Translations under genes and position numbers: made by a program
Shown here: positions 1 to 31,160 of the stretch, piece after piece
Layout: every line of letters starts with the position of its first letter
How positions within the stretch are numbered: the first letter of the stretch is position 1
The notes under the pieces: generated by a model
Told to the model about the DNA's origin: nothing
Seen by the model: only the letters and a program-made list of their open reading frames with translations
Databases searched by the model: none
DNA from: Chromera velia
Taxonomy: Eukaryota > Sar > Chromeraceae
Assembly (NCBI GenBank): GCA_018398765.1
Contig: JAHBMJ010000347.1
Coordinates: 1-45,000 of the forward strand
Reading direction: 5' to 3'
DNA length: 45,000 nucleotides

Positions 1-16
1 TCCCTCTCTCTCTCTC

Positions 17-88
<72 letters not shown>
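1..88. repeat. (CT)n/(TG)n compound microsatellite
   Basis: Uninterrupted CT-rich repeat followed from about position 54 by a TG repeat. It lies in the intron before the first recognisable exon of the plus-strand gene. The same compound CT-then-TG arrangement recurs at 3590-3666 in another intron of this gene. Confidence 0.95.
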
Positions 89-89
<1 letters not shown>

Positions 90-155
90 ATGATTTATCT
101 GTACGTGCGGGTGAGTGGTTGAGTACTCGCTTTGTGTCTCTCTTCTTTTTTGCAG

Positions 156-3100
156 AACGGCTACAGACGATCTGAGACTTTCTGACTGGTCAGTCATCTG
201 TTTTGATGATTTTCCGCAGCTGCCGCGTGAGTGTGCATGCCGACTGAAACACAGGTCGGCCAGAAAGAAAGATGCAGGAAGACAGAAAACGAGAAAAAGG
301 GGGAAGAGGGGATACAGAAAGAGAGACAGCCCACTCGTCCATAGGACAATCAAATTTTCGGACTCTTCAGATAACGTGCTGATCGACACTCGAGATCAAT
401 TTCCCCATGCAAGATGAAATCACACATGCAGCTATCGATCGATTCACGTCTGCGGTCCTTCATTCCTGATTTCTTCCTATACTTCTTTCTTCGTTCTCCG
501 CCCTGATGGTGTGCCTGCAGGCATGGGGTCAAGATTATTCGGACGCCCCCGGTGTCTCCCTCTCCCTCCCCGGAGGGTTCCAATCAAGAGACTCCCAAGC
601 CACTGCTGACAAAGACGGAAGATGCGACTCCCCATGAGGCACACGAACGCGACGACACCCAAGGGGAATCCTTTACAGAACCCCAGTCAGTCAGCCAGTC
701 AGTCAGTCAGTCAGTCAGTCAGTTAGTCAGCCAGTCAGTCAGTCAGTCAGTCAGTCAGCCAGCCAGTCAGCCAGTCAGCCAGTCAGCCAGTCAGCCAGTC
801 AGCCAGTCAGTCAGTCAGCCAGCCAGTCAGCCAGTCAGCCAGTCAGCCAGTCAGCCAGTCAGTCAGTCAGTCAGTCAGTCAGCCAGCCAGTCAGCCAGTC
901 AGCCAGTCAGTCAGTCAGTCAGTCAGTCAGGGGGTCACGAGCGTTCCATATGTGTGCACACAACTTGCGCTCCAAACAAAACAGTATGATCCATGCAGTC
1001 AAATGGGTGTGTTGGACGGACATGTGCCTCTGGACTCCGTGAGCCTTTGTGATAGGACTGGCAGTCTTTCATGCGTCTCGTGCACATGTCAGCCTCATTG
1101 ATCATCATTGATTGATTGGATCGTCAGCATGCACGCCCAGTCGTCAGCAAGAAGCTCTATGCAACAAATCGGTCTGCAAACGCGTTTCTCTAGCTCGTTT
1201 GTGGTGCTTCTTTGACGCTTTTTGTCTCTGCTCCCGTCTTTGCAGAGCTCTCCACAAACAGTGAGTCGAGCCGTGGTTTTAGTCTTTTGCTTTTCTGAAC
1301 GAGGGAGGGTCTCTTGTCTGCGTGTGTTTGGCTTTACTGCATGGGGCTTTCTGGCAACCCTGTCCCTTTTTGTTTCCGTCTAGGATAAGGGATGGGTTTT
1401 GCGGAGAGGCTTTCTTTTTCTGCGTTTGGTTGCTTGAAGAACTGCAAGAGAATACACACTGAACAGATATGCGGGTCACATGTCTTCTCTTCTTCTTCTA
1501 TCCATTCATAAACTAAGTCTTTGTTTACTTCTACCCCAGTCTTTCCCGCAATTTCTGCATGGATGGACTTTTCCGATTTGCGATCCTTCGTGTTTTTGAC
1601 TGATTGGTTTGCAGAAGCATCAAGCTGTCAGTGGATGACTGGACTCAGCTGCTTTCTTTCTTTCGGGCTTTCTTCTGAAAATCTCTCTCTCATTCATCAT
1701 CTGTCTCCTCTCTATTCAATGGGTGTTCGTTGATCGGCTCGCTTGTTCGTGAGAGCGAGTGGCACGCCCAGCTTATTTCAGTGTCTTTCTTTCCGTTCGT
1801 CTCGTCTAAGTTTCTCCTGTTTCACTCGTTCCTGTTTTCCGATAGAGCCTCAGGAAGGGAGGCGTAGCCCTATAGAGAGAGCCTCAGGGGAGTGAAATTT
1901 ATAGGGAGAAGGGCAGTCAAGCAGTTTGTGAGACAGAGAGAAAAGTCGGATTCTTTTTCCTTCAGCTTATCGAATTTTATTTCATTCCCTTTCTTTTCTT
2001 GCTAAGGCCCTCATCCGATCATCCCCCCCCCCTTTGTTTTCACTGAAAACAAAAATGGACAATTTTGCAGAGCGCAAGAGACCCTGTGAGTCCTGTCTGT
2101 ATCATGGAGGGAGTGAGGGAAGTAGGTGGCGTGGAAGGAAGACGAGGCGGAAGAAGGGGGAAAGGGAGGAATTACTCGTGATCGAAGAAAAGAGTGAACA
2201 AATTTAACGACACTTTGAGAAGGTTCTCGAGAGATAATGTGAACAGACGGCAATAAAAGAGGCAAGCCGACAGACACAATCCTCTCATTGATGCTCTTTC
2301 TTCTCGTTCGATCGCGTCCTTCCTCAATCTGACTTCTTTGCCCCTTCTTATCGACTCTCCTTGGACCGTTTAGATCACAGGGTTGTGCGTCACTCTGTCT
2401 GTCTGTCTGACTGTCTGTTTGTCTGTGCAGAGACAGACAGCGAGGGTGAGTAGTTCAGATTGAGTGAAGTACATTCTTTCCATTGTCTCTGTTGTCTCGC
2501 AGTCTCAGGCTCTCCCGCATGTGCATGGGTTTTTCGTTCCTTTTTTGGCTGTACGCAAGAGGTAATCATGTCTGGCCGTCTAGCATGAAATTTAAATTTT
2601 GCGCCTTAATTAAATCTCTTTTGTCTGTGTGCCATGTATCTTTGCTGTTCTGCAGCACCCTGCAGCAGTCAGTCAGCCAGCCAGTCACACCCAGCATTTA
2701 CTTCTTCTCCCAAATGCCACAGCACGGACTTCACTCGTGTGTCACTAGCTTTGCCACTTTCTTTCTCTTTTGCCCATGTGGGATTGTTGAGTGATCGAGG
2801 GGAAAAAGAGAGCTAGGGGCAGAGAGAGAAGGCGAAGGAGAGAGACGCATCGATCGATCGATCATCCGCGGTGCCGCAGAGAGAGCGAGGAGGAATCGAG
2901 GAAGGAATTCTGTCTTCTTGGAGGGCAATTAAGAGAAGTGACTGGACAGGACAGAAATGAATCTGATTGGCTTTCATCGTCATCGAATCCGTTTGTATGA
3001 AGAGATTTCTTCCACCTCTCTGTTCGGGATACGTTTTCTGAACACACAGCACCCGTTTGCTCTGTTTTGATTTTTCATCTGCATTTTGTTTTTTTGTCAT

Positions 3101-3606
3101 GAACAACTTGGCGTCATCTGCAGGCTCCTTGAAAAAAGGTGAGTAAGATTGTGAGCACCCTGCTGAATGTGATCCGTTCCCCTGATCTCCAAAGCATCGA
3201 TGAGACAGGACAGGACAGAACAGACCATACAACACATGAGAAAGAGGCTGAGGTAGGTGACCATCCCTTACGCACAAATAGGATGCAGGATTTTTTTCCC
3301 AAAAGAACAATTCTGTATGGAAAAGTCCTTCGCACAAATATGATGCAGGACTTCGTCTCGTCCCTTTTCGCCCTGTTTTGTCCCTTTCATCCTTCTCCTT
3401 CTGCCTGTGTATGCGAGGCCCTGCATGCCACAGAGACTTCGGCAATCACGTCACAGACATTCTCGTGAAATTTTGCTGCTGCACCTGGGGAGAAATGAAT
3501 GAAAAACAAAAGAGAATTAAGGGCGTGTGGGACCACGGTGATGTGCTGTTCGAAAAGCATGACTAGAAGACCATCCTCCCTCCCACCCACCCTCTCTCTC
3601 TCTCTC

Positions 3607-3666
<60 letters not shown>

Positions 3667-6600
3667 CATCCCAACACACCTGCCTACCTGCTTGCCTGCC
3701 TGAGTCCATGCAGGGAGAGAATGAAGAAGGAGAGGGAGGCGCTGAGTGACGACCTGGAAAAGGAGAAGGCGCGGCTCGAGCGGTCAGTCTTCCTTGCACC
3801 TCTGCCTCCCTCCATGTCCTTTCGGGCCCCCCGGGCTTATGAGGGACGGTTGATCACCGTCATGCATGCAGAAAAAAAGAATTAGAGGGCAGTCCGAGGA
3901 AGGGAGCTTAGTTTGACTGCGCAGAAACGAACTTGAAAGACCCGCATTCACCTCCATTCTCTCGTTTCTGCTCTGCATGCTCTCTCTGTGTGTGCAGGGA
4001 AATGCTGAGGCTGAGAACGTGAGTAGAAGCGATCGAAAAACGTCTTTCCCATCCAAATTCTTTTGAGCTCTTCTCTTTGTTCTCCGGGTGTTGTTTCTTC
4101 TCTTTCCCATGGCTGTCCTTTCCTTTTCCTTTCCTTTCCAGGAGCTCGCTAGGTGTCTGTCCCTTTCTTCAACCCCGTAGAGCTCAAGTGGCTACCCCTT
4201 TCAAACGAATAGTGCTTCAATGATGCAGATTTCCTTCTCCCCCCTTCCCCCCTTTTTTTCTCTGTGCAGCGAAGAAGTGAGGATGGACATGTCAGTTGGC
4301 CCTGAGTTTCTTGGCGCTGGTTTTTTCTTCTCTTGTTCTCCCTCTTCTCTTTTCTTTCTCGCATTAGCGGTGGTCGTGGACGGATGGACGGCGCAAAGTG
4401 CAATGAATTACCGGTCTATGGATGGACAGATGGACATGCAGAAACGGTCAATTTTCAGTCCCCTCTGGGGATTTTGACAATCTTCGGGCACAGGCAAAGC
4501 CGATTGGACCTCAGAGCTGCCTGGGAGAAAGTAGAAGATTGGCATGCACGTGAACAAAACGAAAGGAAGGAGCGGAATATCGGCTCAGTCTGCTTCATCA
4601 TTGGACCAACCGTGCACCAGAGCAGAGTGCTTCCAACTGAAAGGAATGGACGAAAGACCATCTGTATGGTTTTTGCGTTTCCATAAGTGTCTTTTCTTTT
4701 CTTTGTCTGACTTTCGAAATTTTGTTTTGCTTGCAGGAGCGTCACATTCCAGTGAGTCAAGTGGCGTGATATGTCTCCTTTGTTTTTGCTTGAGTCGTTT
4801 CTTTTCCTTTCGTCCCTTTCCTTCCCTCTTATTCACTTGTTGGTGACGCTCTATCTTTCTTGATTGCTTTCTTTCGAACTCCGACTGTCAAACAATGATT
4901 GGCTGTCTTCGTGCTTTTAGCGGGCTGCCAAAATTGTTGGTAACGGATTTTTCTTTCAGGCTTTTGCGATGTCCTCGTCCATTTGTCCCGGCTTTGTCTA
5001 TGAGTCTTCACCTGCTCTCATTTCGTTCCCATTCGTCGTATGACGGTCTGAGTGTTCGTGCTCAGAGACTGCAGTTTTCTTATGGGTGCGATGCAAGCAA
5101 AGACAACCCAAAAGCAGGCTCACAGATAAACTCTCTGACTAGTCGCGGATCTACGTGAAGCTGGGACTTCATTTCTCCCGCTTGAAAAAACGCGAATGTC
5201 TCTTGGAGCCTTCGACTTCTCTGGTCCTTCTTCTCCTTCCTTTTGTCGCTTCACTCTTCTCTCTTTTTGTCGGTGTTTGGTTTTGCAGGCGCAAGGAAGT
5301 GTGAGTAAGCTAAAAGGGAAAGGGATAGACAGAGACAGAAGAAGCGACAGAAGGACAAACAGACAGACAGACCGACAGACCGACAGACCGACCGACAGAC
5401 AGACAGCTCAACATTTCCACAGTAGGGGGGAGAGAGGGAGAGGAAGAGCAGCAGAAGGACACGGAAGAAAAAGAGGGACAAAGAGAGGAAACGGAGGGGT
5501 ACATCAATGCATCGCTTCCTCCCAGCTCGATGAACGATCTCTGTCTTTCTTTCTTTCTTTCTGTCCGACGGCCAGATAGATCCTGGGGTTCAGCTTTCGT
5601 CTTCTCCCTTCCCTCACAATGAGGTGACAACCAATAATAACATTAGCTCTTGTTCATCCGCTAGCTGTTCACAGAATTCATTCGCAGTTTGGAAGGCCTG
5701 AAAGAAATCGCCTCAATTCACGCACAATGAACAGACGGGTCTCGAGCCCTTCCAATGTGAGGTGTCCTTTGTTTCACCCAACTTTGATGTATGCATTTGC
5801 GTCCCTGCTGTTGAATTAACTAGCTGTCTTTCGTGCTGTCTGCCTGTCCTCCGATGTGCTTCCGTGATGCATGCATCGTGCAGAGACAATGCCGAACGGT
5901 CGGTGCACTCATTCTAGCGTTCTGTACGTCAATCTTTGTCTTACCGCGTTTTTTTATCGTTCGCGAGAGAGGACACAGACATGCACGCATGGGTTGAGTT
6001 TCGACTTGACGCCCGTGGTGGGGACCCTGTTGAATTAAAGCCATGCACGGATCGAATGACTGTGAGGAATCCCCCGAGACTTCATGCAGTGAAAGTTTAG
6101 AAACAGGCAAGTGCAAGTTTGGAAACAGGCAGACAGTCAGACGGAGAGACACACTGACTGTTGGCTGGACGGACGGACAGGCAATGAGTTCAATTTTTCC
6201 TTCCTTGGACAGACATTGATTGACATGGGTGGGATTCATGATTCATTCACGCAATCAATGAAATGGTGCATGCGTGTCTGGCTGTGTCTTCGTTTTATTG
6301 TTCGTGTTTTTGCAGAGCCCTCAAATCGTCAGTCAGTCCGTGAGGCTGCATGTCAACAAACTGGCTTGCTTATGCGATGGAAATTCTGTGGCTTCATACA
6401 TCCTCCCTGCAATCTCTTCATGCATGTACTGCACAAAAGAATCCATTGGTGTTTTGAAGTTTGTTGGAGCTCTTTCTTAAATCTTCTTCAAGACCGACGT
6501 ACCCGTTCGATGGCATGGCATTAGGTCAGTCTCATTCCTCCCTCGAGGGCCTGATCGATTTGGTGCTTCTTAGTAAATACAATAATGCCCTCTATGTTCG

Positions 6601-8356
6601 TGATTTTTTTTTTGCGTGCAGAGCCCAAGAACGCGCGTAAGTGTCTGTTTTAATTCCATTCCGTTGACATTCTTTGCATTCGGTTTCTTCAATTGCATGC
6701 AGGGCTCCCTCTCTCCGAGTTGCTTAATTTTTATCCTTCTGCTGGTGATTCGGGAGCATCCCTGTACTTGTACTGTCTTTCCTCTGTCACTGCTGAAACT
6801 TCAACGGGGGGGGAATATTCTCCTCGTGAGATGACGCTCACTTAATTTTTCTGCTCTGCTCCAAAGCTCCCCTTCATTCTGTTGTGACGACAACTTCTGG
6901 GGCCTTTGTCTTCTGGCGGTGCTTCACATTTATTTCATCTCTTTCTCCCCCCCTCCCTGCTGCCTGCAGCGAGGCATACGAGCGACAGTTTGCTGCCGCG
7001 TCTGCCCTTCTGAAAAGCCATCCAACCGTGACCATCTCCCTCTCCCCTCACCACCCAGACGCTCCAACCCCTCTGGTCGTTTCCCCGAATCCTCAACTCT
7101 CTCTGCCCACAACAGCAATTGGCGAGGCAGGCATAGAGACTCCCGACACCACCACCCCCGTCGTTTCCATCTCAGCCCTTAGGGTCTCTCGAACGTCTTC
7201 CAGCTCTCCGACCCACGCGATAGAAAAAAAGGGAGCCGGAGAGACGCCCTCAGTCGATGGTCCCAGTGCCACTCTACCAGAAAGTCGAACAACAACAGAA
7301 GCGGATCTTGAGGAAGGAGAAAAAAGAGAGACAAGACAAAAGATTGAGAAGCAAACAGAACAGCCAACCGGCCCATCGCACAGTGTTGCTGTCACCCTTC
7401 CAACCGCTTCCCCGTCAGCTTTACAGTCTGAGCCTCTGGGCGTGGACGCACACACAGGCATCGACTTGAAGGTCAACAACAAAACTTCTCACACAGAGTC
7501 TCTCAAGGAAGACAGACACAGTACGTACTTGCCCTCTGTTTCCGTCTCCCCTTCGAGCAACCTGTCGACAATCCAGGGATCCACAGAGACGTCGTTGACA
7601 TCCTCTCAAGGCTCCCCTTTGAACTCCACTGACCGATTTCCTCTCCCAAACTCCGTCTCCAGTCCCTCCCTCATCAATTCAGAGGGACTCATTCAGGTCA
7701 TCAGACTGCAACCAGACAACAACGAGAAGACACACACACTGACAAGAAACAAGTCATTGTTGAAGAACGATCGGGGGATCCAAAGTGTATCACTCACAGA
7801 TTCTCGGAAGGAGCAATCTACAAATAAAGAAGTGGAAGGGGAAGGGAAGCTTCCATCCAGGAGAATCACACTGCGGCCGGACTCGAATGCTTCCTTCTCC
7901 CTGTCCCACTCCGTTCAAGACCTGGAAATCCTCCCATCGTCCCCTTCACTTTCGGCCCCCGCACTTCTTGAGAAGGCAAAAAAAGAAGACGAGGAACGTA
8001 CGAAGCCCACTCGGACTCCGCAGCGTCTCCCAAAGTCACAGCATGCCAGTGCTGCTGGAGGCTCCACTGACTTTAGCGCACTGCAGCAACGGGAGCTTCA
8101 AGAAAATCTTAAGGCTCAGTACCAGGCTCAAGGCGCCCCTCACGGTCCTGATCTGAGTCAAAGAGAAGAAACGGCCCTCCACCCCCAGAGTGCAGAAGCC
8201 CCAAGCTCGAATACAGTCTCCCTCCAAAATGTAAAACCCCACTCACCGAAGTGGACAGCCACTCCGAATCCGGCTCAAAAGAAGTCCTTGGTGGGATCTG
8301 ATCCGTTTGACAAACTGACACTAACAAGTTCGATTGACGTTAAGCCTGCTTGGTGA
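156..8356 (+). CDS. Coiled-coil protein built from tandem micro-exons (3' part; gene starts upstream of the window)
   Basis: No known family recognised. Exons by frame and splice sites: 156-188, 521-685, 1246-1260, 1615-1626, 2071-2085, 2431-2445, 2503-2520, 2656-2667, 3124-3138, 3714-3782, 3998-4018, 4270-4290, 4737-4751, 5289-5300, 5884-5898, 6316-6327, 6622-6636, 6970-8356. Every intron is phase 2 and every internal exon is a multiple of 3, so the joined frame is open for 621 residues to the TGA at 8354-8356. Residues about 67-178 of this partial protein form a charged, Leu/Ala-spaced coiled coil; pieces include LAQETLDRQRGLRLS, REALSDDLEKEKARLE and ALKSAQERAEAYERQFAAA. The last exon (461 residues) is low-complexity and rich in Ser, Thr and Pro, without recognisable domains. 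Donors are mostly GTCAGT or GTGAGT. The two first exons and the 5884-5898 exon (donor GTCGGT) are the least certain. The gene converges on the next, minus-strand gene. Confidence 0.72.
686..931 (+). repeat. Tetranucleotide GTCA/GCCA array at the start of an intron
   Basis: About 245 bp of GTCA units interspersed with GCCA, beginning exactly at the GTCAGT donor of exon 521-685. The array is a head-to-tail run of GTCAGT-like donor sequences. It reads open in the upstream exon's frame as Ser-Val-Ser-Gln repeats, so intron retention would be translatable. Confidence 0.9.
3590..3666. repeat. (TC)n/(TG)n microsatellite
   Basis: CT-rich then TG-rich dinucleotide tract inside the intron upstream of exon 3714-3782 of the plus-strand coiled-coil gene. 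It explains the spurious Ser-Leu and Cys-Val open frames there. Confidence 0.9.
5350..5405. repeat. (ACAG/ACCG)n tetranucleotide repeat
   Basis: Tandem ACAG and ACCG units in the intron between exons 5289-5300 and 5884-5898. No coding signal is seen. Confidence 0.85.
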
Positions 8357-9580
8357 CTTACAAAAGCAACTTGAAAAGAGACAAAAACGATTTGCAAAAT
8401 CTATCAAATGAAAACAGTATACCAAAAACGACGCTAGCTTGAAGCCTGTAAGGGTATTTTTTGGAGCACTGAAGGCTTATCAGCTCATATCAGGAGTTAC
8501 TAAGACTGTCACTTTGTACAAGCAGGAAAGTCACGGTTATCACAGTATAGGATGATGTGGAGGGCAAACGCAATGCAGCTAGGTAGTAGATATAGACATA
8601 CCTTGAAAGTTCTTTCTGGTGCCTCCCCTTGCATATGCTCTTTGAACTAGTTCTGCTCTACTTCTACGTATACATTTCAAGTTTTTGTATTAATTTCAAA
8701 AATTACTACTTCTCAGTAATAGCGAAAATCATTAATTTTTAAGATTATATGATTAAAAAAAAATAAATAATAACAAAAATCATTCCACAGTGATGATGAT
8801 GATGATTTAGAGTTACTTTTTAAATCTATCAATGTTAAATCCCAAGCTAGTTCCCAAGCTACCGAGTATTTTTGCCATTAGCAAGGCTTTAGAAATAACC
8901 GTAGTGACACATTCATTCATATAATTTTATGGGGGAACATTGACTTAAAGTTTGTTCCTAGCGTCTGGCCTATACTTCTTTTGTCTCTTCCTTCTGTCCT
9001 GGTTACTGCTCTTGCTGCTAGCTCTCTCTCTCGTGCGATCTCATAGTTGATGCTCCTCCATTCGAATGCCTTCTTCAGCATTTGCTAAACATATAATTTT
9101 ATAGTAGTAGATGGTAAAATAGTATTAAATGCAGCGGCTATATAGTACTGGCTATAAAAATCTCACAAGAAAATGAAAGTTTTAAACTTAGTTTTTAGAA
9201 AATATCATACATGATAATTTGATAAATTTACAGATTTTACATTCAACTAATCAAAGGTCTCGTTCCCCAACTGGCGTTGGCTAGGGCATTGGTCCGTTAG
9301 ACCGCGTTGCATATGTATTAATGCAAGCTTGCTATCACTATACAAGACTTTCACTGGACTTCTCCCTAATAAGACTTTTTTAAATCTGTGATGATGATGA
9401 TAAAAATTTTAATGCTGAGGGGGGCTAAATCCTATATTCAATAATTAATTTTTAAAGTGACATGCTGCATTTTTCTTATTGCGTATCTTAGTGCCAGTGC
9501 AGTGTAGGTAGGTACTTGTCTAGGGTGAAAAAGAAGGAATTATAAAGTTTTACAATCTGAGCAAAGGAATAGCTTTGCTT
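8357..9580. other. AT-rich gene-free island after the coiled-coil gene
   Basis: Composition changes abruptly after the stop codon at 8356. The next 1.2 kb is clearly AT-rich, with A and T runs and short GAT repeats, and has no long open frame. The first part presumably holds the 3' UTR. The rest looks like decayed non-coding or transposon-derived DNA, but I see no clear terminal repeats. The sharp edge with the CT/GA-rich DNA after 9580 suggests an insertion. Confidence 0.55.
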
Positions 9581-12802: not shown

Positions 12803-15800
12803 CTACAGGTCACTGAGGTCCTTCAGCCTCTCTGCAGAGCTGTACGGAGTCAACCCCAACCTCTCAGCGTACACAATCACGGGCTTCCTGCAGGGGGTCA
12901 TGCATGCGGGATTAGTTTAATTGAGTATATATGTATACTTGCGCAAATAATAGGAGTTGAGACGAAAACTAGATACGGAGTGACACAAATTTATCAACAC
13001 GGACGTCTTATTGCTTTTTCTACCGTCTCTCCAGAGTCTTGGACCTTTTCGAAATGAATTGCGAACACACTTCTGCCTGACTCACTCACGTGTCTGGTTT
13101 TGTCTTTGTGAGGGTTCTGTGGTCGATCTCCATTGCCTTGAGGTCTTCAGGGAGAAGGAGACTGGCCCGGATCTGGTCCTCAGTCATGCAGCTCTCGTCA
13201 CACCCACTCGCCCGCATTTTTCGGATGCGCCCCTCTTGGCTGCAGCATCACACACACACGTGGGCGGTAGACAGGCAGACGAACGGGTGACCGGAAATGA
13301 TGGGGATCTCGCAGGGGATGTCAGAAGGTGCGGAAGAAGAGAGAGGAAGAATGACAAAAATGACAATTCAAGCGGATGTTACTGGATGACTGCTTGAGTG
13401 CTTCAAACTTCTTGTGACAGAGGTGCTTGGCAGCCCTGCAAAGGAACAAGTGCTTTGCTCAGCTGACAAAAATCACAGCTAGACTTCTGAGAGAAAGAAA
13501 AGGAAGGCCGAGACCAAAGTGGTACTTTTCGGCATAAAACCGGCTCCTCCTCTTTTCTGCCATCCTCTTCGCACTGGATCCTTTCCACCACCCACCCACC
13601 CAAAGGCTCCAGGGCTCTCCACCGGGAAAATCCCAGAGGACCAGCAGAGAGTCGTCAGGTAGCGCTTGTAGAACCCAGAGGGCTCTCTGCATTCAGGCAG
13701 AATTAAAGAGGACTGAAAGGACCGGATTGAAAAAAGATACAAAGGGAGGAGTGAAGAAGTGTGGAGGAGTTCCCCTGAAACAAACACCTTCTAGCTTCCA
13801 GTGAAAGGATGAAAGAGACACCGAGAGCGCAGGAGGAGTCCAAGGCGTCAAAATGCTCATAGAATATAGTCAAGGCACAAAACAAGGAAGGACTTTCCGA
13901 GCCTTTAGACTTCGTCAGTGGTCATTCAAAATCTCTTCCATAGGCACAAAATTAGTACTGATGTCATTCGTTTCTCACCATGAGAGTTTCCTTTCTCAGT
14001 CCATTTCATGTATCATACCATCACGCACAAGACTAAGTATCATCCCATCAGCTTCAACTGAGCGGGAGCACGGTGATTGCATGAAGATTGCACGTCTGAC
14101 CCCCGCGCTGTCCGCCAGCTACCTGACACATGCACTTTTTCTCTAATTGACTGTCAGAGTGGCAAGAAAGAGACTCACTCACACATTGTGGGCCCTCAGG
14201 TTGGAAGGCAAAAGTCTGTCGCTCTGGAGGCTCTCTGGAGTCACCCCCGCAGCGTCCAAAAGTCTCCAGAGACCCCACTTGTCCTCTATGCCCATCGCCT
14301 CGAATCTGTCTCTCGCTGTCTTCGTTTCCTTCTCCTGAAAAGCGCGGGCCTTCAACCTGTTTCCATTTCAATGAAGCAAACGTTGAATCAAGGCAGTTGA
14401 TGGAGTTATCATACACAGGACAACAATAGGGAAGGAGAAGAACCCAAAAAGGAACTACTGGTGGTACCCCCTCGCCGGACTGGGTGAGGACAAAAGAGAA
14501 AGGAAACATGCGATTGAATCTTTTAATATTGGAATCCCTTCGGTTTTTTCTGACAGCCAACTGCACCTCTCTTGCATTGAGGCTTTGCCGACTCGCCGAT
14601 CCCTCCCCTGCTTCCCTTTACACACGCGCACAATTACTTGCTTACCCACAAACTAAAGTACCCAGCGGCAAGCTGACTAAGTCCCCACACCCCAAAGGCA
14701 AGCCACCACAAATTCATGCTGCCCTGCTGAGACATTCGCGCTTTCGCACATCCACACGTGCATATTCACACTCATACTTTCCCCCCGTATGTTTCACTCA
14801 CTCAATCAATCACTGACTGACTGACAAATTGCCTGTCGCAATGTCCAGCGTTCTTTGAAACAAGGCTTTCATCTCCTCTCCGTTCCCAGTCCTCAAGGGC
14901 TCCCTTCCTCCTTTTCTTGAGGAAGTCCCGCTACCTCCGAGTCGACCTCCGTCTCCTCTGCCCTGCTGCTGGTGTCCCTCTCTCCCCTCTCCCCCCTCCT
15001 GTTCTGCTTCAGCCGAGTGCGTGTCTCTTTCTCCGTCTCTGTCTTGCGCCTGCTCTCCTTCCTCCTCCTCTCCACTCGAGTTATCGCTCTCATGGTCATC
15101 GTCCCCCCACCCAAAAAACATTTTGACCTTCTGCCAGCCGCTTTTGTCTCTTTTCCCACTTAGCCGGCTTTGATCCAAAAACGACACGGCATTGCCCGTC
15201 CGATGAGCTCCTGCATATGCAACACCAAGAAGAAAATTCACTGGCTGCAGGGGTCACAATGACGATCGTTCAATTGATGGGCGTCCTGTGTCAGAGAAGA
15301 AGAACGTGGTAACGCCAAAGGGAAATTAGGAATTGTGAATGACTTTGCCCACTCATACGAGGCACCGCTTCATGGGAGGCCTGCCGTCTTTTCAAGCTTG
15401 GAACGTTTCAATGACGATCCACTCGATCATGGAATTCTGGGATGATGGCAGCCATGCAAAAAAAAAGAGAGAGATCGAGCCTGTATGAAGAAGCTGAGTG
15501 ATGGAAAGAATTTGTGTGTGCGAGAAAGAAAAAGGGCAGTCAGACGGACCCGCCTCCTCCTCGACTTGAAGTTCGCGAATTGGCGTCCGGGACTCGTCCT
15601 CCAAATTCCTTTCGCCTGATGCCATTCCTTCATTTAAGTCGGCGGCACGGTCATCGAGTCCGGTCACCGGCTTTTTGCCTCTCTCTGCACTCTCGTCAAG
15701 GCTTCTCTCAGATCCAGGCCTGCCAGTATCATCTCTGTCTACTATCTCATCGAGGCTTTTGCGAACGACAGGTGCCCCCATTTCATCTCTGTCTGCACTC

Positions 15801-16843
15801 TCGTCAAGACTTTTGCGAACGACAGGCGCGCCTGTTTCATCTCTTTCTGCACTCTCGTCAAGACTTTTGCGAACGACAGGCGCGCCTGTTTCATCTCTTT
15901 CTGCACTCTCGTCAAGACTTTTGCGAACGACAGGCGCGCCTGTTTCATCTCTTTCTGCACTCTCGTCAAGACTTTTTCGAACGACAGGCGCGCTTGTTTC
16001 ATCTCTTTCTGCACTCTCGTCAAGACTTTTGCGAACGACAGGCGCGCCTGTTTCATCTCTTTCTGCACTCTCGTCAACGCTCTCATCCAGCCGAGGACCC
16101 GATCTTTCGTCCCGGTCTGATCTGTCTCGTTCCTCCCTTTCTCGTGTCAACCTTACCGCTTTCTCTTCCTCCAGAGCCCTTTTTTGGGCTTCTTCAGTGT
16201 TCCTCCGCTCCTCTTCTGCCTTCCTCTTTGCTTCTGCTTCCTCTTTTCTCTTCGCCTCCTCTTCCCTTTTCTTCGCTGCCTCCTCGTGCTCTTTCTTCAC
16301 CAGCGTCTCCGTCTTCTTGAAGGTCTCTTTGAAGCTCTCAGGGGACACATTTAGAGACGCGAAGGTCTCTAGATCCTTTGGCTCGGGAAGGAACTCTCCT
16401 CCTCCTAGGTCGTTGGCAATCTTTGCAACCATCTTTTCCAACGCCTTCTTTTTCTTTTTCTCCTGTTTCCTTCGCATCTTCTTGAAGTTGAACTTCTCGG
16501 TCTCTCTGCATCAAATTGGATCGGGCATTCAGGAAGAGGAAAAACGAGGGACGAAAAGACTTGTCGAGTGCAATCATGCAGAAAAGACACATGCATCAAC
16601 CAATTAATGGCAGCAACTCACTCGAAGAGACCCAAAACTTCTCTCCCTCCAAACTCAACCAGAGATCATACACAGAGCGTTAATCGTCCGCTGATGCCAA
16701 GGAGAGAAAAAAAATGAAGTGCATGTCATGCGTGCAACCGATTTCCTTCTCCTTTCCTTACTCCCTCCCTCCCTTCCTTTCCTCCCTGCTTGCTTTCTTT
16801 CTCCCTTCACCACCTTTTTTTTTTCTGAAGCTCGACGCCACGA

Positions 16844-19800: not shown

Positions 19801-22672
19801 CTCAGTAGAGCCTTCACCCCTTGTACCTTTGACCAGACAGGGCTCCGACTGTGTCACTGACGCACGCCATTTCGGGTTCTTTCTCATAAACGGACAAATA
19901 GCGTTGCAGGCCGGTATCTGCCAGTCCTCACAGAACAAGTTCTTCTCCACCTGACCCATCCATGCTCTAGGCATGTTGCACTGCTGAGATGCCTCTGCCA
20001 GTGCCGCGTTTTCTGCATTCTCCTCAAGCACCTGACCTGCCCAGCGTGCTTCGAAATCTCGGCACTGCCTTCCGCAGGCACGGAAATGCTTGCATTTTGT
20101 CGTCCAGGCCTCAAACTCTTTCTGCTGATTGCCTTCTCCACGACCATCTTCCCCCTCATCGGATCCCCTCTTCTTCTTCACCATCACCCGGCACTTCGAT
20201 GGGTAGAGGTTGGGGCAGAGGGTTTCTGCAGATGCGCAGGGCATCCATCGGTCGCAGAGAGAGGGGGGAAACCCCATTCTGCTCTCCATAGTTCGGATGT
20301 GATTCATCACACTCAGCTGAGCGTCTTCCTGCCCTTTCAAGTACTTCATTCGGAGCAGAAAGGTGCACCTGCACATTGAATCGAAGTGAAGGAGACAGAA
20401 AGAGATTGGAAAAGGGATGATGGCCAACGCGAAGGCCCCTTTTGACCCCACAATATCAAATTGGACACACATCTACATAACAAAAAGAAAGAATTGAAGT
20501 TTCCAAAACAGAAAAGAGCCTGTCTGGCACACGAACAGCCACCTGATTCAAAACTCTATTGAGGGCTCAGAGAAGCTCATCAGTAATGATCACCTTCTTT
20601 TGACGTGCAGAAAAAGAGACGAAAGAGTCAACTGACCTGTGTGCGCACTGTTCTCTCTTCGCGAACTCATCACAGAAGGGAGTGGACTCCTCCATCAAGG
20701 TCATCTCTTCAGAGACGGCAGCCCTCACAGGGCACTGCCCAACTTTCTTTCTGTACAAGTGGGCTGCCTCGTCGATCGTTGCCTTCTTCATCAACTCGCC
20801 CTTCTTTTTATCCTCGACGATCCTGCTTGCAATCATTGGGACACTCATTCGTTCGTTCGTTTGTTTGCTGTATAATTAAGATGATGTGATCTGTCACATT
20901 GTGGATGAATCCCCCCCACAACGGAGAAATGCGAGGTCGCCAATATGCACAGAACCTTGCGGCAACCACTTTGTGAACAGGCAGCAAAATCAGAATGCAA
21001 AAGAGACAGCGGGGAATAAACAAAATGCCGGAGGGAAAAAACGAGAGTGTCGCGAGGGGGCGTCAGAAGACCAACAACGAACATCTCTGGCATCGCGAAG
21101 AATCGTCTGGACATTCAAGGGCCTTGACTGGGAAGGCTAGACTTGATGTGTCCTTGCGTGCGTCAGAAGAATTGGACATTCAAGCGTATGCAAAGGGAAG
21201 AGTAGATCGACTTACGGTTTGCAAAAGCTGCAGCCAGAAAGAAAGGAAAACAAAAGAGCGTAAATTCTTTTCAAATAACAAAGCATACTGCAAAGCCCTG
21301 AAGTCTTTCTTTTCTTCTCAAGACGCACATCTGCTACACCTCTGCATCTAGACTCACTCTTCCGCTAGTTCTGGTTTTTCCTTCCTTTCTTCCCTCAACG
21401 TCCGCACACATTCAACGCGACAGATTCATGAAGCCCCGTTTCTTTCCATCCTTCTGTTTTTTCCTCTCGGCAAGTGCTTGCAAGCTGCCTGAGCATTGCT
21501 TTAGAGCTCTTTGCTGGAATCCCCCCGATGGGCTTCCTGTTCCTGTTTGATTTCTTTCCTGTTTGTCCCTTTGAGGTCGTCACAATCGCCTTTCCCAAAG
21601 GATCTCTTTGCCCTGCTGACTTGCTCAATCACGGCTTTTTGTTTTGCTGCCTTCTTCTCTACCTCCTTGACTGCCCTTGTTCGTTTGTGCCCAGGCACTC
21701 GAGCCATCCTGCCAGTGACTTGAACGGACAGTAAATGGAAAAGAGAGAAGGGAGGGAAAACAGACAGGGAAAGTGGTCGTTTCATTGGGCTGACTGAATG
21801 ACGCACTCACTGACTCACACAGTTCTGCCCTCCCTCCCTCCCTCCCTCACTCACTCACTCACTCACTCACTGACTCTTCGCAGTCCCTGCAAGCAGAACA
21901 CATATGGGAGGGGATGGGGATGTGTCACGGTGGTCCTGTTGCGAGCTTCCGCCCTCCATCTCTGAAGAGAGTTTGTGGTGCCAGGAAGGGAAAACAACTT
22001 CAAAACTGTGCGACACTCCAAGAGGAGAGAAAAAAACGTGAGGTCCATGAGTCGAGGGAGGGATCCGTCTCTTGAAGAGACGAGCGGGGCGGTATTGCAT
22101 CCTAATGACTTTCTTCGCGCAACCAGCTCTTCCAGTCAAATGATAGCCAGACTCACTCGTACTGTTCTGCCGTTTCCAAGGGAGTGCTGCAGTCAACGAA
22201 AAAAAAAGAAGACAAAGAGATGTTCACGTCAGTGGAGTCAGATCGCAAATTGAGAAGAGAGAGGACCCAGCAAAAAGGTCTCTCGCATGTCTTGCTTCAC
22301 TGCCAGACAGACCAACAGAAAATTCGAGTCCTACAAAAAGTCGATCAATCGAAAAAGGAAAAAGGAGAACAGAATGCGCGAGCAGGCGTGTCGATCGAAT
22401 CAATTGCTAATGTATTTCTGCCTGTGGTACCTTGACCTTCTTTTTTTGGCTGTCCCTGCATTTTTCAGTCAGTCTGCCTCTTTGTGTTTTGACCTCTATT
22501 TCCCCTTTGCCCATTTCCGTGATTATTTTTCTGTAAGCAATTCAACCAAAGCGGATTTGCATAAGCATTTATGCTCGTCCTTGGATGATCCCGCCGAGAA
22601 ACCAAAGGGACTGACAACAAAGTGCAAGACGACTCCCTGCAAAAAGACAAACGAGGTGAGGAAACACACACA

Positions 22673-23166: not shown

Positions 23167-24231
23167 GAGAGAGGCAGAGGGAACGAGACGACGAGAGAGG
23201 GCCGGACGCACTGAAAAATTGAAGGGAACCAGAAAAACGCAAATCTTCTAGAAATCCCAGGAAGAAATCTCATGGTTCAACGCAGAGAGGGGGCTGATTG
23301 GTAGACGAAAGACTGTCCGCAGGCCCAAAAGAAACGAAACGTGGAGAAAGGACGAGACTCAAGAAAATTGCCTTAAAGCACTTCACGAAATTTCATTCCA
23401 CCACTTCCGAGCGACCCATCTCGAGAGAAGCACATCAAAGAATCAAAAGGGAAATTAATTTCCAAAACTGACACTGAATGACAGTTCCTGCATGCAGACA
23501 CGACCAGACGGGAAGAGAGGCACTCGTAAACACACACAGAAAAATCGACACTGGACAGAAATTCCCCTTGCGAACGCCCACTTGGCGAAGAGAAGAAGGG
23601 AGGTCATTGTGCCGAATGACCGTACAGTTGCCAGCCTTCACGCCTCTACAGCAACAAACAGATTGAGATAGAGTCAGAGAGACACAACTTCGAATAGAGA
23701 ATCAACAGTGCCTTTTTGATATTAGTGCGTGCGTGCTTTTCGCGCTCACGTCAATTGACTGACGGCAGCATCAATCCGAGTCCCGTGGCGTCCAGGTTGT
23801 CGTCCCCCTCCACAACGAAGGTCCGACTTCGGGCAGACGCCAGTGAGAGCAGCGAAGAGATCGCTCTGCATGCTCACATATGGGAGTAACACGGTCACAC
23901 TCGCAAATTCAGTCAGATCAATTGATATATGCACACAACGGCAAACACTCACACACACATACACATGCACACACAGATCCACGGGGATGGGGTGTGGGGG
24001 TGGAGGAGACAAAGCAGGACAGAGAAGGAACGATAAAAGAAGGAGGTAGGTGCAGTGTAACCTTTCAACATAAGAAACAAACGAGCACCGGCTCGCAAAA
24101 ACTGCGCATGTATCGACTAACGCATCTGCGTGCATGTACATGTACGTGTGCGTGTGCACGTACATATATACTGTCAGAGAGCAAGGAAAAGAAACTGTCG
24201 AGACTGACATGCCAAGTAGATGGAGAATCAT
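12803..24231 (-). CDS. Predicted secreted, cysteine-rich multidomain protein, about 1,532 residues
   Basis: No family recognised. Exons from the 5' end: 24209-24231, 23764-23865, 23473-23487, 22157-22186, 21875-21886, 20637-20867, 18650-20368, 18155-18223, 17301-17837, 17017-17082, 15550-16505, 14826-15210, 14183-14356, 13391-13435, 13090-13239, 12803-12887. They total 4,599 nt, exactly 1,533 codons. All introns are phase 2 except the phase-1 intron between 15550 and 15210. The start gives a plausible signal peptide, MILHLLGIAISSLLSLASA, then an acidic stretch. Residues about 42-320 are cysteine-rich. Next come Ser/Pro- and Glu/Lys-rich linkers, an 18-residue tandem repeat and a recurrent 'L..LGITPEDC..ADV' type motif, ending at TAG 12803-12805. 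It probably enters the secretory pathway; no membrane span is obvious. Further micro-exons may be missing in the 1 kb gaps before 20867, and an optional 45-nt exon at 13642-13686 would add 15 residues. Confidence 0.7.
15690..16080 (-). repeat. 54-bp coding minisatellite (18-residue repeat), about 7 copies
   Basis: Lies inside exon 15550-16505 of the secreted-protein gene. The unit encodes DESAERDETGAPVVRKSL. Three to five copies are nearly identical and those at the low-coordinate end are degenerate (for example DEIVDRDDTGRPGSERSL). The period is a multiple of 3, so copy-number change keeps the frame. The opposite strand is open in two frames across the array only because of the repeat. Confidence 0.92.
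16846..16912. repeat. (TG)n microsatellite
   Basis: TG repeat with interspersed TTTGTG units inside the intron between exons 17017-17082 and 15550-16505 of the minus-strand gene. Confidence 0.9.
19735..20867 (-). other. Cysteine-module region of the secreted protein
   Basis: After splicing exon 20637-20867 to 18650-20368, the sequence FCDEFAKREQCAHRCTF is created across the junction. The pattern C-x(15-32)-C-x(5-8)-C-x3-C then appears four times; the last three cysteines of each are CDEFAKREQCAHRC, CKHFRACGRQC, CEDWQIPACNAIC and CGSFDFCALRC. One further cluster, CDRWMPCASAETLC, sits between the first and second. With a signal peptide upstream, these cysteines are likely disulfide-bonded. I do not recognise the fold; it is not a clear ShK, EGF, PAN or CPW-WPC pattern. 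Confidence 0.65.
21828..21874 (-). repeat. Donor-like GTGAGT repeat after a 12-nt exon
   Basis: On the minus strand the intron after micro-exon 21875-21886 starts GTCAGTGAGTGAGTGAG and continues as GTGA units, then GGGA units. The donor hexamer is thus repeated many times in tandem at the intron start. Confidence 0.8.
22672..22770. repeat. (CA)n/(GA)n microsatellite
   Basis: CA run followed by an interrupted GA run in the intron between micro-exons 23473-23487 and 22157-22186. It produces the Ser-Leu and Cys-Val pseudo-frames on the minus strand. Confidence 0.92.
23079..23162. repeat. (CT)n/(CA)n/(GA)n microsatellite
   Basis: Successive CT, CA and GA dinucleotide tracts within the same intron of the minus-strand gene. 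The CT and GA arms are complementary and could form a hairpin. Confidence 0.9.
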
Positions 24232-26261
24232 TCCGGTAGACGGGCAGCAGCTACGCAGATACAGAGCTTTCCCTGGTCGGCGAAAAAGAAGGGAGGGATT
24301 TGCCTACAAAAATTGGGACATGCGCGCGCCCGCCCAGAGTCCGAGTAAATTTCGGACCTGTTAGCGACTCTTCAGTAGCCGTTTCATCGAAAATGTCTTG
24401 AGCTGCAGTGCACAGAAGCTGTGCAGGATCACGTTTGGTTGTCTGACTGGATGTTCTGTTTGGCCTTATTGGTTGCTGCACCCTAACGCATGCGTGGGGA
24501 AGAGCTTCGAGAAAGTGATACACAATGAAATCGTGCCAGACGTCAGTTCGTGTGCTTGCCAGTGGCATATATGCATCTCCATAGAGAACTATGAATGCAT
24601 GTATATATTGAGAGAATGATTCGATCTGGAGCTGCATGTGCATGAAGTCGGACGCGTGTGCATGTATATGTATGGATGTGCTGCATGCGAATCTCTGTTG
24701 TTCGTGTATCGGTATGCATGATCGGATCGAAAGGCTGCATCCATGCATGGAGCCTAAAGAAATGCATGGAGCCGCGGTTGCATGGGGACATGCACGCAGA
24801 ATTGCATGCAGAAATATAGGTTATATATATAGATCCGCCCCGGCCTCATAAATGCATGCATGGGGACTCGGCATGCATAACAAAACCCTCAACCATCGTT
24901 CATACTCATAGAATCGCCGCTGATCGAAGGACATTATACTGAGTCCAAAGTACCACATAACACGCACCCCCTGCTCAAGATGGCACTCCACGGTCGTCTG
25001 AAATGACAGCTTCCTTGCTTGGGTTCTTTCGTTTGCATGCGGCTCGAAAAGCTGCTCGTTGATATAACACGTCTCCCCTGCTCAAGCCCACAAGTTTTTT
25101 CTTTCCAAACTCCTTGGCGATTCCATCTTTCTTCCTCAAAACAAGGTGAGTGCTGCTGGCAAAGTAAGAGAAGGGAGTGAGTAGAGAAGCTGGAAGTCGT
25201 ATGCTACCGAGATGCAAAGACAGATCGAAAGATTAGCGTAGACAGATCGAAAGATTCAAAGACTCCCGTCTCCTTCCGTCTCCGTGAATTTCCTTCACGT
25301 CTTCCCTTCTTTTCACCTCTATCTGCCATGTTACCAGCCTGTCGTCATCCTATCTGTCCACATTTCCTTACCTCTTGCTCTTTTTCTTTGAAATGACGGC
25401 AGCCGTGGCAGCTTCCAAACCGATTCGAGCTTGACGAGAGGAGACGGCGAATGTAGAGATCCGTCTCCCTTCTCGATCGTTTGGTTCAATCTTTGTCCCT
25501 TCTCGATCGTTTGGTTCAAGCTTTGTCCCTTCTCGATTGTTTGGTTCAATCTTTGTCCCTTCTCGATCGTTTGGTTCAATCTTTGTCCCTTCTCGATCGT
25601 TTGGTTCAATCTTTGTCCCTTCTCGATCGTTTGGTTCCATCTTTGTCCCTTCTCGATCGTTTGGTCCAATCTTTGTCCCTTCTCGATCGTTTGGTTCAAT
25701 CTTTGTCCCTTCTCGATCGTTTGGTTCAATCTTTGTCCCTTCTCGATCGTTTGGTTCAATCTTTGTCCCTTCTCGATCGTTTGGTTCAATCTTTGTCCCT
25801 TCTCGATCGTTTGGTTCAATCTTTGTCCCAAGGTCACTGGCAGCTCTGCTCTGTTGAAGCTTAACACGACGTTTCTCATGATCAATCTGAAGTGTCCCTT
25901 TCCTTGCATGTGGCAGCTAGCTGTGCTTCCTTTGAGGTGGTTGCGAGATGAACGCCCCGGGCCCGTCAGTCCCTTAATTTCTTTGTCTCCATGCATGGCA
26001 TTGCCCTGTGACCTCGAAAGCTGAATGATACCTGGTTTCTCGCATCTCCCGCTCCTCCAAACAATTCGGTCCCCCCCCAGCTGAGGCTTGCACACTCTGC
26101 AGTTCTGTATGCAAACTCACCATTGCTTTACAGTAGTAGTGTAGTCACTGCTTTTCTTCCTTCTCTGCAGAATGCGCCAATCTTTTTGACACCCGCCGTA
26201 CGCAGTCGAATCGCCGGACCGGTAGACTGACACTAGGGCTGTAGAGGTAAGGAATAGACTG
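24232..26261. promoter_or_regulatory. Divergent intergenic region between the secreted-protein gene and the hydrolase gene
   Basis: About 2 kb between two predicted start codons pointing away from each other, so both promoters should lie here. It contains many ATGCAT-type palindromes (24590-24890) and the 30-bp satellite at 25462-25830. An open minus-strand frame at 24975-25217 looks mildly coding-like but could not be linked to either gene. No TATA box or initiator could be singled out. Confidence 0.4.
25462..25830. repeat. 30-bp satellite, about 12 tandem copies
   Basis: Unit CTTTGTCCCTTCTCGATCGT plus 10 more bases, nearly identical between copies (single changes such as TTCAAG, TTCCAT and GTCCAAT). 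Each unit carries the palindrome CGATCG. Because 30 is a multiple of 3 and the unit has no stop, all three plus frames and at least two minus frames stay open through the array. The minus frame reads GQRLNQTIEK repeats. Open frames here are therefore no proof of coding. Confidence 0.95.
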
Positions 26262-28166: not shown

Positions 28167-29166
28167 TTACACAGCCCCCACTACAGGCCGCCATGCTTCC
28201 CATATTCTCATGACTTGCTTGTCGAAAGATTCGACCCTGACAGGCTGGTCCTGCTCGTAGAAGGGGTTCTTCAGGACCCAGTCCGAGTAGGCCTCGTAGA
28301 TCTGTTTCAAAAAGGGGGCAAGGTCCTGAATGCCTGGCTGGGCAACCACAAAGAAGCGCATGCCTGCACACATATTGGGGCAATCCATCGAGAGAGAAAA
28401 GAAGAACAGAGGGACTGCAGGTTTTTTTCTTTTCCCACATTCTTTTTGCATGCACAACAGACAAAAAAAAAAGAAAGAAAGAAGCAAAGCCAAAGAGAAA
28501 GACGGTCACTCAGACAGATATAGACAGACCATATCATTCTCTCTTTCCTTCTCTCTTCCTTTCTTTCCAATCACGGAGACCAACTGAGAGAAACGCAGGC
28601 AGACACCCAGACAAACAGCATCACTTATTCATTCTTTGTCTTTTTCCTTACAGAAACACAACGAAATAAGAAAAGAAAATCATATGGACAATCAAACATA
28701 AGACAGACAATTCAACAGTGTGGAGACAGACATACTCTGTGGCTTCTTTTCTTCTTTCCTTTCACATACACAGACAGACTGTATGTTTCTTTTTCTCCCT
28801 TCTTTTCTTCATGTAGATAACAGACAGTCAGAGGGACAGACAGACACACCGGACGAGAAAAAAAAGAGAGGAAGAAAGAAAGAAGGAAGGAAGGAAGGAA
28901 GGAAGGAAGGAAGGAATGGCGGAAGGAAAGAAGGAAGGAAGAAAGAAAAAAAGAAAGAAAGAAAGAAAGAAAGAAAAAAAAGAAAGAAAGCCAGGGAGGA
29001 ACGAACGAATGAACGAGATAAAGAAGGAATGAATGAATGAATGAATGAATGAAGAAAAAGAGAGAGAAAGAGACAGAGAAAGCCAAAGAGAAAGCAAAGA
29101 ACGAAAGATACAGAAATAGAGACATATGTGTATACACACAGACACAGAACCACGCACGCGCGCACA

Positions 29167-29202
<36 letters not shown>

Positions 29203-30626: not shown

Positions 30627-31160
30627 TCTTCTCTCACTTTGTCTTCCGAGAAAGAAAGGAACTCCAAAGACGGACTCCAGCCAAAGATCCTGGCTGGACT
30701 ACACAGAGCTGCCAATCTCAAACAAGGAGACGGGGCCCTTTTCTTGTCACAGGGAGATGAACACTCTACCTTGGCGCCAGAAAACCGAACAAAAAAAAGA
30801 GAGAGCCGTTTGGCTGATTCAGCAGGCCTTCTTCTCTGCCTTCCACCTACCACCTAACAACGCGGTGGGTATCGATCCGCTCTTTGAAGTACTTACCGTA
30901 CAGAGCACACGATTTCATACCATCCAGTCCGAACAAAACTCGTGCATGGAAATCTTCTCTAAAGCTGCATGGACAACTGGTGCGGATGACGTGCAGGCCT
31001 CCGACCTCTGACGACACCAACATCGACTTCGTCGGAGGGATTCGGAAGGATGATCTATCCTCAGTCGCGGGAGGAATCCCGGAAGATTCGTCGCATCGAA
31101 GGAGACGTCGACAACCTTGGAGGAGACGGCCACCGCGGCGCTGCATGGCTGTGGGCCCGA

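What the first reader, a model, noticed from the sequence alone, without database searches (positions are those of the whole stretch)
1246..6636. Coiled coil encoded by a run of fourteen 12-21 nt micro-exons, all phase 2
Micro-exons of 4-7 codons follow each other with only one longer (69-nt) exon among them. Each has good splice borders and a length divisible by 3, and all are in phase 2. Translating the joined exons gives an uninterrupted heptad-like coil, which would be very unlikely if the exons were chance matches. Skipping exons would change coil length and register in steps of 4-7 residues without frameshift. Consecutive arrays of this length are unusual; the idea of combinatorial coil tuning is inference.
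Basis: partly seen in the sequence, partly recalled or inferred. Interest (0 to 1): 0.88.

Follow-up and report, generated by a model that had tools for sequence, protein, structure and literature searches.

The report
Coiled-coil gene built from micro-exons
In the genome of a single-celled organism, probably an alga related to malaria parasites, part of a gene is chopped into thirteen tiny coding pieces of 4 to 7 amino acids that all break the code at the same point, so any piece could be left out without scrambling the protein; no RNA evidence was available to show whether that happens.

Summary
Between 1246 and 6636 (+) lie 13 (not 14) micro-exons of 12, 15 or 21 nt plus one 69-nt exon, all with TGCAG acceptors and GT[ACG][AG]GT donors, all phase 2 on both sides. 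Upstream exons (156-188, 521-685) and the terminal exon (6970-8356) keep that phase. Chance is excluded: 13 matches against a mean of 0.027 (maximum 1) in 1000 shuffles and 0.08 expected from a genome sample. The joined frame has no stop (2 and 10 in the others) and shows heptad periodicity (p = 0.003; 0.7% of exon orders reach it). Combinatorial tuning is possible (all 8192 exon subsets stay open) but not shown. It is not a one-off: a second gene here (minus strand) and a contig elsewhere (C2637, 21 predicted exons of 9-48 nt) show a similar phase-2 micro-exon layout, while predicted splice sites in other long ORFs are of mixed phase. Closest known: schistosome micro-exon genes and aphid bicycle genes (also phase 2); it is a member of neither. 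It looks like an independent case in an alveolate, probably Chromera velia (inferred, no species test). Transcripts would decide.

The parts
156..188 (+). exon, 33 nt, phase 2-2 (first exon found; the contig starts at base 1, so the 5' end of the gene is missing)
   Evidence: TGCAG / GTCAGT, open in phase 2
521..685 (+). exon, 165 nt, phase 2-2; donor lies at the start of a long (GTCA)n run
1246..1260 (+). micro-exon 1, 15 nt, phase 2-2
1615..1626 (+). micro-exon 2, 12 nt, phase 2-2
2071..2085 (+). micro-exon 3, 15 nt, phase 2-2; pyrimidine-poor tract, not returned by the filtered lists nor by the chain searches
   Evidence: implied by the count of 13
2431..2445 (+). micro-exon 4, 15 nt, phase 2-2
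2656..2667 (+). micro-exon 5, 12 nt, phase 2-2, followed by gtcagtcagc
3124..3138 (+). micro-exon 6, 15 nt, phase 2-2
3714..3782 (+). 69-nt exon of the coil, phase 2-2
3998..4018 (+). micro-exon 7, 21 nt (7 residues), phase 2-2
4270..4290 (+). micro-exon 8, 21 nt (7 residues), phase 2-2
4737..4751 (+). micro-exon 9, 15 nt, phase 2-2
5289..5300 (+). micro-exon 10, 12 nt, phase 2-2
5884..5898 (+). micro-exon 11, 15 nt, phase 2-2, donor GTCGGT; not returned by the chain searches
   Evidence: one search used coordinates one base off
6316..6327 (+). micro-exon 12, 12 nt, phase 2-2, tandem donor gtcagtcagt
6622..6636 (+). micro-exon 13, 15 nt, phase 2-2, donor GTAAGT
6970..8356 (+). terminal exon: 461 residues (end of the coil, then a Ser/Thr/Pro-rich tail), stop TGA at 8354-8356
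23764..23865 (-). second gene (minus strand): 102-nt exon, phase 2-2 in the model
23473..23487 (-). second gene: micro-exon 15 nt
22616..22636 (-). second gene: micro-exon 21 nt
22157..22186 (-). second gene: micro-exon 30 nt
21875..21886 (-). second gene: micro-exon 12 nt
21216..21227 (-). second gene: micro-exon 12 nt
20637..20822 (-). second gene: 186-nt exon picked by eye (acceptor AAGCAG, not TGCAG; not returned by the chain searches); it is what decides for phase 2

Best explanation
This is a spliced nuclear gene of a protist in which a coiled-coil segment of about 100 residues is split over 13 micro-exons and one 69-nt exon, all in phase 2, joined to a terminal exon that encodes 461 residues, mostly a Ser/Thr/Pro-rich tail. 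Each intron (210-583 nt) would be recognised across the intron, since exons of 12-21 nt are too short for ordinary exon definition (established knowledge), by a canonical U1 snRNA at GTCAGT/GTGAGT and by a TGCAG acceptor, mostly behind a pyrimidine-rich tract. Because every intron lies between codon positions 2 and 3, inclusion or loss of any exons keeps the frame, and the split residue stays the same in 90 of 105 skip junctions. I think the main mRNA includes all exons, with skipping forms as minor or regulated products. Shown: exon borders as sequence, phase, open frame, periodicity, skip-safety. Inferred: splicing itself, the main isoform, coil formation in vivo, any role of skipping.
For: 13 motif-bounded open phase-2 micro-exons against 0.03-0.08 expected. 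Of 14 motif matches of 6-36 nt in the region, 13 have lengths divisible by 3 and the other is a second, tandem donor of the exon at 6316; the 39 filtered matches in the genome sample split 11/13/15 for mod 0/1/2. No stop in 107 codons against 2 and 10. Heptad power p = 0.0028; exon-order shuffles 0.7%; full inclusion in the top 5% of 8192 exon subsets. Codon score p = 0.0024. Same-phase chain scores 192.5 for phase 2 against 145.4 and 97.0 for phases 0 and 1. Skip junctions: 0 stops in 105, residue kept in 90. The U1 candidate above Rfam's cut-off has the 5' end AAACUUACCUG. Similar layouts in two further genes.
Against: No RNA evidence. No homologue or paralogue: the genome search gave only the gene's own exons below E = 0.03, Pfam nothing, PDB only generic coils (vimentin, E = 0.11). 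Periodicity in residues 8-70 alone is weak at 3.5 (p = 0.087; 3.6 gives 0.024), and 8 of 14 single skips do not lower the signal of the whole, so full inclusion is only mildly favoured. The splice matrices were trained on these arrays, so the chain scores (199 and 283 against at most 67 in 40 sample strands, two of them wholly masked) overstate the contrast. The free chain did not return the full model: it missed micro-exons 3 and 11, took a spurious 13-nt exon at 4142, left phase 2 from there on and ended micro-exon 12 at its tandem donor.
Confidence: 0.72

Rival explanations
1. Regulated or stochastic combinatorial splicing: many isoforms that skip different subsets of the 13 micro-exons are the normal output, producing a family of coils of different length and register, as described for schistosome micro-exon genes.
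For: All 8192 subsets stay open and 90 of 105 skip junctions keep the residue. Donors GTCAGT and GTCGGT mismatch the canonical U1 at +3, and the last exon base is not enriched for G. Some donors are tandem (2656-2667, 6316-6327). Eight of 14 single skips do not lower the heptad signal. Schistosome MEGs of similar layout are described as generating variants by alternative splicing (PMC4350168 and PMC5825161, passages).
Against: The same donor GTCAGT follows the longer exons (156-188, 521-685, 3714-3782), so it does not mark optional exons. Full inclusion ranks in the top 5% of subsets. Skipping the exons at 4737, 5884 or 6622 cuts the heptad power from 5.9 to about 2. No isoform data.
Confidence: 0.28
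2. The micro-exons are chance motif matches inside one or a few long introns.
For: Acceptor and donor motifs are short; a stop-free 88-codon frame in a given phase is expected in 3.6% of within-exon shuffles.
Against: 13 observed against 0.027 in shuffles and 0.078 from the genome sample, none on the other strand, one shared phase, no stops, heptad continuity.
Confidence: 0.03
3. The introns are recently inserted mobile elements (introners) that fragmented an ordinary coil exon, and the phase is a by-product of target choice.
For: Dense introns in a short coding stretch; three genes without evident sequence relation share the phase.
Against: A 1001-base stretch of exons and introns matched nowhere else in the genome (the search skips simple repeats). 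The 36 introns of the two arrays share only stretches of 21-34 bases, in few introns. An element that inserts in DNA cannot read the codon phase (established knowledge).
Confidence: 0.08
4. Pseudogene or decaying gene.
For: The 5' end is off the contig and no homologue was found.
Against: No stop or frame break across 615 codons of the joined model; all 16 introns GT..AG.
Confidence: 0.05

Closest known systems
Schistosome micro-exon genes (MEGs)
   Same: 10-20 very short exons, mostly multiples of three, mostly 15 nt, separated by introns of 100 to almost 5000 nt (PMC10526429, one passage); short symmetric exons of 6-36 bp (PMC5825161, passages). The terminal exons of MEG-8 and MEG-9 are phase 2 at their 5' end (same paper).
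   Different: MEG short exons make up about 80% of the coding region and the products carry signal peptides (passages); here exons of 36 nt or less are 12% of the visible coding sequence, the product is a coil plus tail, and the 5' end is missing. MEGs appear restricted to platyhelminths (PMC4350168, passage).
Aphid bicycle genes
   Same: Many micro-exons and almost all internal exons in phase 2, unlike other genes of the same genome (PMC9168663, passages): the closest match to the phase pattern seen here.
   Different: Bicycle homologues show CYC motifs (passage; that this means Cys-Tyr-Cys is recalled); the joined protein here has no cysteine. No bicycle sequence was compared.
Plant conserved micro-exons
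   Same: Exons of 15 nt or less inside coding frames, often missed by annotation (PMC8831610, passages).
   Different: 45 conserved clusters of mixed phase (16, 21 and 8 in phase 0, 1, 2), with two adjacent micro-exons mentioned in one rice transcript; the passages seen mention no long run in one phase.

Membership tests
Schistosome MEG | Consecutive symmetric micro-exons (6-36 bp) | tested here: met
   13, consecutive but for one 69-nt exon, all multiples of 3, all phase 2
Schistosome MEG | About 80% of the coding region in such exons | tested here: not met
   228 of 1849 nt (12%) in exons of 36 nt or less, in the visible part of the gene; the 5' part is missing
Schistosome MEG | Signal peptide / secreted product | not testable with these tools
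   The first exons lie before the start of contig C346
Schistosome MEG | Alternative splicing of micro-exons | not testable with these tools
   No transcript data
Schistosome MEG | Platyhelminth genome | tested here: inconclusive
   11 matches to the alveolin family IMCp suggest an alveolate, but the same search also rang in 1 of 14 control genomes (Caulobacter vibrioides), and no species-level test was made
Aphid bicycle gene | Many micro-exons, nearly all internal exons phase 2 | tested here: met
   All 16 exons of the model before the terminal one are phase 2-2
Aphid bicycle gene | CYC motif(s) | tested here: not met
   No cysteine in the 615-residue joined model
Coiled-coil protein | Heptad periodicity of hydrophobic residues | tested here: met
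   Power at 3.5 residues, p = 0.0028 over 107 residues, but p = 0.087 for residues 8-70; no published coil predictor was run

The most novel reading that the evidence does not exclude
An alveolate alga evolved, independently of flukes and aphids, a set of unrelated genes whose coding sequence is cut into phase-2 micro-exons, and uses exon choice in them to make many in-frame protein variants, here up to 8192 coils of different length and register. The recurrence of phase 2 in aphids, in part in flukes, and in this protist would then reflect a shared constraint of splicing very short exons, for instance the wobble base falling at the acceptor's +1 position (A or G in 25 of 35 exons).
Probability: 0.25. 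Interest if true: 0.85.

Novelty: new variant of a known kind. Interest (0 to 1): 0.62.

Why it matters
Runs of micro-exons in one phase are described for two animal gene classes at host interfaces. Finding a similar layout in several genes of a protist, one of them a coil, would suggest that it can arise without that setting and would give a third, independent system for asking how a spliceosome with a canonical U1 recognises exons of 9-21 nt and why phase 2 recurs. It would also mean that standard gene models of this genome may be wrong over such stretches.

Tried and rejected
Genome-wide phase-2 rule: not supported. In 98 ORFs of at least 180 aa from the sample and the window, strong predicted acceptors fell in phase 0/1/2 in 5/4/3 cases and strong predicted donors in 3/5/8. 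These are predicted sites, not verified introns, and the phase-2 counts include one acceptor and two donors of the second micro-exon gene. A looser first count gave 27/28/17 and 41/32/40.

Altered U1 snRNA to match GTCAGT: rejected. Of three U1-like loci, the two that align over the 5' end both read AAACUUACCUG; one is above Rfam's cut-off and one below.

Introner origin: no support. RBFOX-like TGCATG (motif role recalled) in the array introns: 25 against 15.4 expected, a mild excess. Exon boundaries tied to the heptad: p = 0.10.

Single skips of 12- or 15-nt exons destroying the coil register: this was my draft claim; one search does not bear it out as a general rule (8 of 14 single skips do not lower the heptad power). 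I therefore lowered full inclusion from 0.75 to 0.72 and raised combinatorial skipping from 0.25 to 0.28.

Mod-3 bias of isolated micro-exon motifs elsewhere: of the 100 places listed (202 in all) I kept 73, dropping tandem-donor duplicates, repeat copies and this contig; lengths mod 0/1/2 were 30/26/17. For one search outside C346 and C2637, 44 places gave 18/7/19, and 33 without obvious repeats gave 16/7/10. No clear bias.

Skip-safety as the reason for phase 2: not sufficient, because phase 0 would be at least as safe (reasoning).

An actin search for placing the organism gave an actin-related protein and was not pursued.

Literature: the pair 'micro-exon' and 'Chromera' returned 0 papers; a search needing any 2 of 6 terms listed 20 of 1735 papers, none with either spelling of micro-exon; brought nothing on protists in their listings. 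This is not proof that nothing is in print.
Full report
WHAT WAS CHECKED. The window is contig C346, bases 1-45000, of an assembly of 177.8 Mb in 4040 contigs. Reading 1-9000 and listing acceptor-donor pairs gives the exons in the parts list. Between 1246 and 6636 there are 14 exons: 13 of 12-21 nt and one of 69 nt. All borders are TGCAG and GT[ACG][AG]GT, all lengths are multiples of 3, and all are phase 2 on both sides. The array is preceded by exons of 33 and 165 nt in the same phase and ends in a terminal exon with a stop at 8354-8356. The gene's 5' end is missing because the contig begins at base 1.

CHANCE. A strict count (TGCAG, 12/15/18/21 nt open in phase 2, GT[ACG][AG]GT) finds 13 on the + strand and 0 on the - strand of 1201-6660; 1000 dinucleotide shuffles give a mean of 0.027 and a maximum of 1; 20 loci of the genome (350,062 unmasked strand-bases; L025 wholly, five others partly masked) hold 5, which predicts 0.078 here. 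In that sample the looser candidates (6-36 nt, tract filter) number 39, with lengths mod 3 of 11, 13 and 15 for 0, 1 and 2. A free exon-chain search gives 199 for this region against at most 67 (median 9.8) in 40 sample strands, but its matrices were trained on the arrays, and its path missed micro-exons 3 and 11, took a spurious exon at 4142 and left phase 2 from there on. Restricted to one phase, the chains score 192.5 (phase 2), 145.4 (phase 0) and 97.0 (phase 1).

THE PRODUCT. Joined in order, the 14 exons and the start of the terminal exon give 107 codons without a stop in phase 2, against 2 and 10 stops in the other frames; the segment has one glycine, one proline and no cysteine. Hydrophobic power at a period of 3.5 residues has permutation p = 0.0028, and 0.7% of random exon orders reach it. 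Residues 8-70 alone are weaker (p = 0.087 at 3.5, 0.024 at 3.6). Codon scores of the 13 micro-exons are reached by 0.24% of sets of intron pieces of the same lengths, though another frame scores as high with 7 stops. PDB sequence search finds vimentin chains at E = 0.11 and NCBIfam finds MutS2 and SMC at E of 0.02-0.03, far below their cut-offs: generic coil similarity, not homology. The terminal exon encodes 461 residues with 70 Ser, 46 Thr and 44 Pro. Pfam recognises nothing in the joined protein, and a genome search with the coil and the start of the tail found only the gene's own exons below E = 0.03; both queries carried one extra serine.

NOT ALONE. Two more cases turned up. (1) On the minus strand of the same window: exon 23865-23764 (102 nt), then five consecutive micro-exons (15, 21, 30, 12, 12 nt), all multiples of 3. 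These six alone leave two frames open and the chain scores of phases 0 and 2 tie at 70.3. With the next exon, 20822-20637 (186 nt, picked by eye, acceptor AAGCAG), phase 2 has 0 stops and the others 4 and 6; with part of the exon from 20368 they have 4 and 11. A further exon of that strand, within the ORF 17878-17282, also shows phase 2 at both ends. The product contains cysteines and does not look like a coil. (2) A motif search of the whole genome (49 places, 31 for the reversed control) showed one other contig, C2637, with two separate same-strand hits. Its sequence holds a phase-2 chain of 21 exons of 9-48 nt over 28304-38183, all multiples of 3, seven of them 9 nt; joined, it has 0 stops in phase 2, 4 in phase 0 and 6 in phase 1. 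This chain was searched under the phase-2 constraint; same-phase chains score 250.8, 230.3 and 190.1 for phases 2, 0 and 1, while the free chain, with 24 exons of mixed phase, scores 283. Exons 34827 and 35552 have low scores and may be wrong. Within-exon shuffles are stop-free in 0.125%. Pfam and PDB give no identity for it (Pirin at E = 0.28). Further motif searches found 202 places against 91 for the reversed control, 28 against 17 and 307 against 83: isolated micro-exon-like sites exceed the control, in part through (GTCA)n runs. In the complete list only C346 held two hits that are not tandem copies, one on each strand, i.e. one in each gene; for only the first 100 places could be seen.

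PHASE AND SPLICE SITES. Predicted splice sites in other long ORFs do not share the phase: acceptors 5/4/3 and donors 3/5/8 in phases 0/1/2, with one acceptor and two donors of phase 2 from the second micro-exon gene. Donors in the two arrays are GTCAGT 17, GTGAGT 12, GTCGGT 3 and GTAAGT 3 of 35; the C2637 exons were found with a TGCAG and GT[ACG][AG]GT pattern, so these shares depend on it. The C at +3 is unusual (established knowledge), yet the two U1 candidates that align over the 5' end read AAACUUACCUG, so +3 C is a mismatch without a compensating change. Introns of both arrays share only short stretches, and a 1001-base stretch of this array occurs once in the genome: no sign of recent introner insertion.

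MECHANISM. With all introns in phase 2, leaving out any exons keeps the frame: of 105 pairs of non-adjacent exons from 521 to the terminal exon no junction makes a stop and 90 keep the upstream residue (171 of 190 and no stop for C2637), and all 8192 subsets of the 13 micro-exons stay open. This makes skipping harmless to the frame but does not show that it occurs. Of the 8192 subsets, 406 reach the heptad power of full inclusion (5.91; median 1.47); skipping the 69-nt exon or the exons at 4737, 5884 or 6622 cuts it to 1.0-2.2, while 8 of 14 single skips do not lower it. Full inclusion is thus mildly favoured as the main product, and a set of coil-compatible skip forms cannot be excluded.

ORGANISM. 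Eleven matches to the alveolin family IMCp suggest an alveolate, although that search also rang in 1 of 14 prokaryote controls. Chromera velia (193.66 Mb in 5953 scaffolds; passages of PMC4501334) fits the size if small scaffolds were left out. This is inference; no relatives could be searched.

COMPARISON. Schistosome MEGs share the exon lengths and symmetry (PMC10526429, one passage; [quoted passage not shown] Membership in either fails on tested features (coding fraction 12% of the visible part; no cysteine). The resemblance is in architecture only, so I call it a new variant of a known kind.

Noticed in passing
window 23865-20637 (-): A second gene with five consecutive micro-exons (15, 21, 30, 12, 12 nt); phase 2 once the next exon is added; cysteine-containing product with no Pfam match over cut-off.
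   Followed up: partly
L031, L030, L032 (C2637:20500-47500): A predicted chain of 21 phase-2 exons of 9-48 nt, seven of them 9 nt, longer than the array that was given.
   Followed up: partly
window 686-930, 2668-2690, 6328-6340; many contigs: Donor sites often run into (GTCA)n tandem copies, giving several possible donors 4 nt apart; TCTGCAG-N9-24-GTCAGTC occurs 307 times against 83 for the reversed pattern.
   Followed up: no
L040 11-165, L041 11-139: U1 snRNA candidates with a canonical 5' end although GTCAGT (C at +3) is the commonest donor in the two arrays; L041 is below Rfam's cut-off.
   Followed up: partly
window 32356-35061 (+), 26226-27131 (+), 43365-44231 (+): Neighbouring ORFs: ubiquitin carboxyl-terminal hydrolase domain, alpha/beta hydrolase, RNA recognition motif; the best acceptor in the ubiquitin-hydrolase ORF is phase 1, not 2.
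   Followed up: partly
window about 15700-16090 (-) and 25435-25860: Tandem repeats inside open frames: six copies plus degenerate ones of DESAERDETGAPVVRKSL on the minus strand, and about twelve copies of a 30-nt unit at 25435-25860.
   Followed up: no
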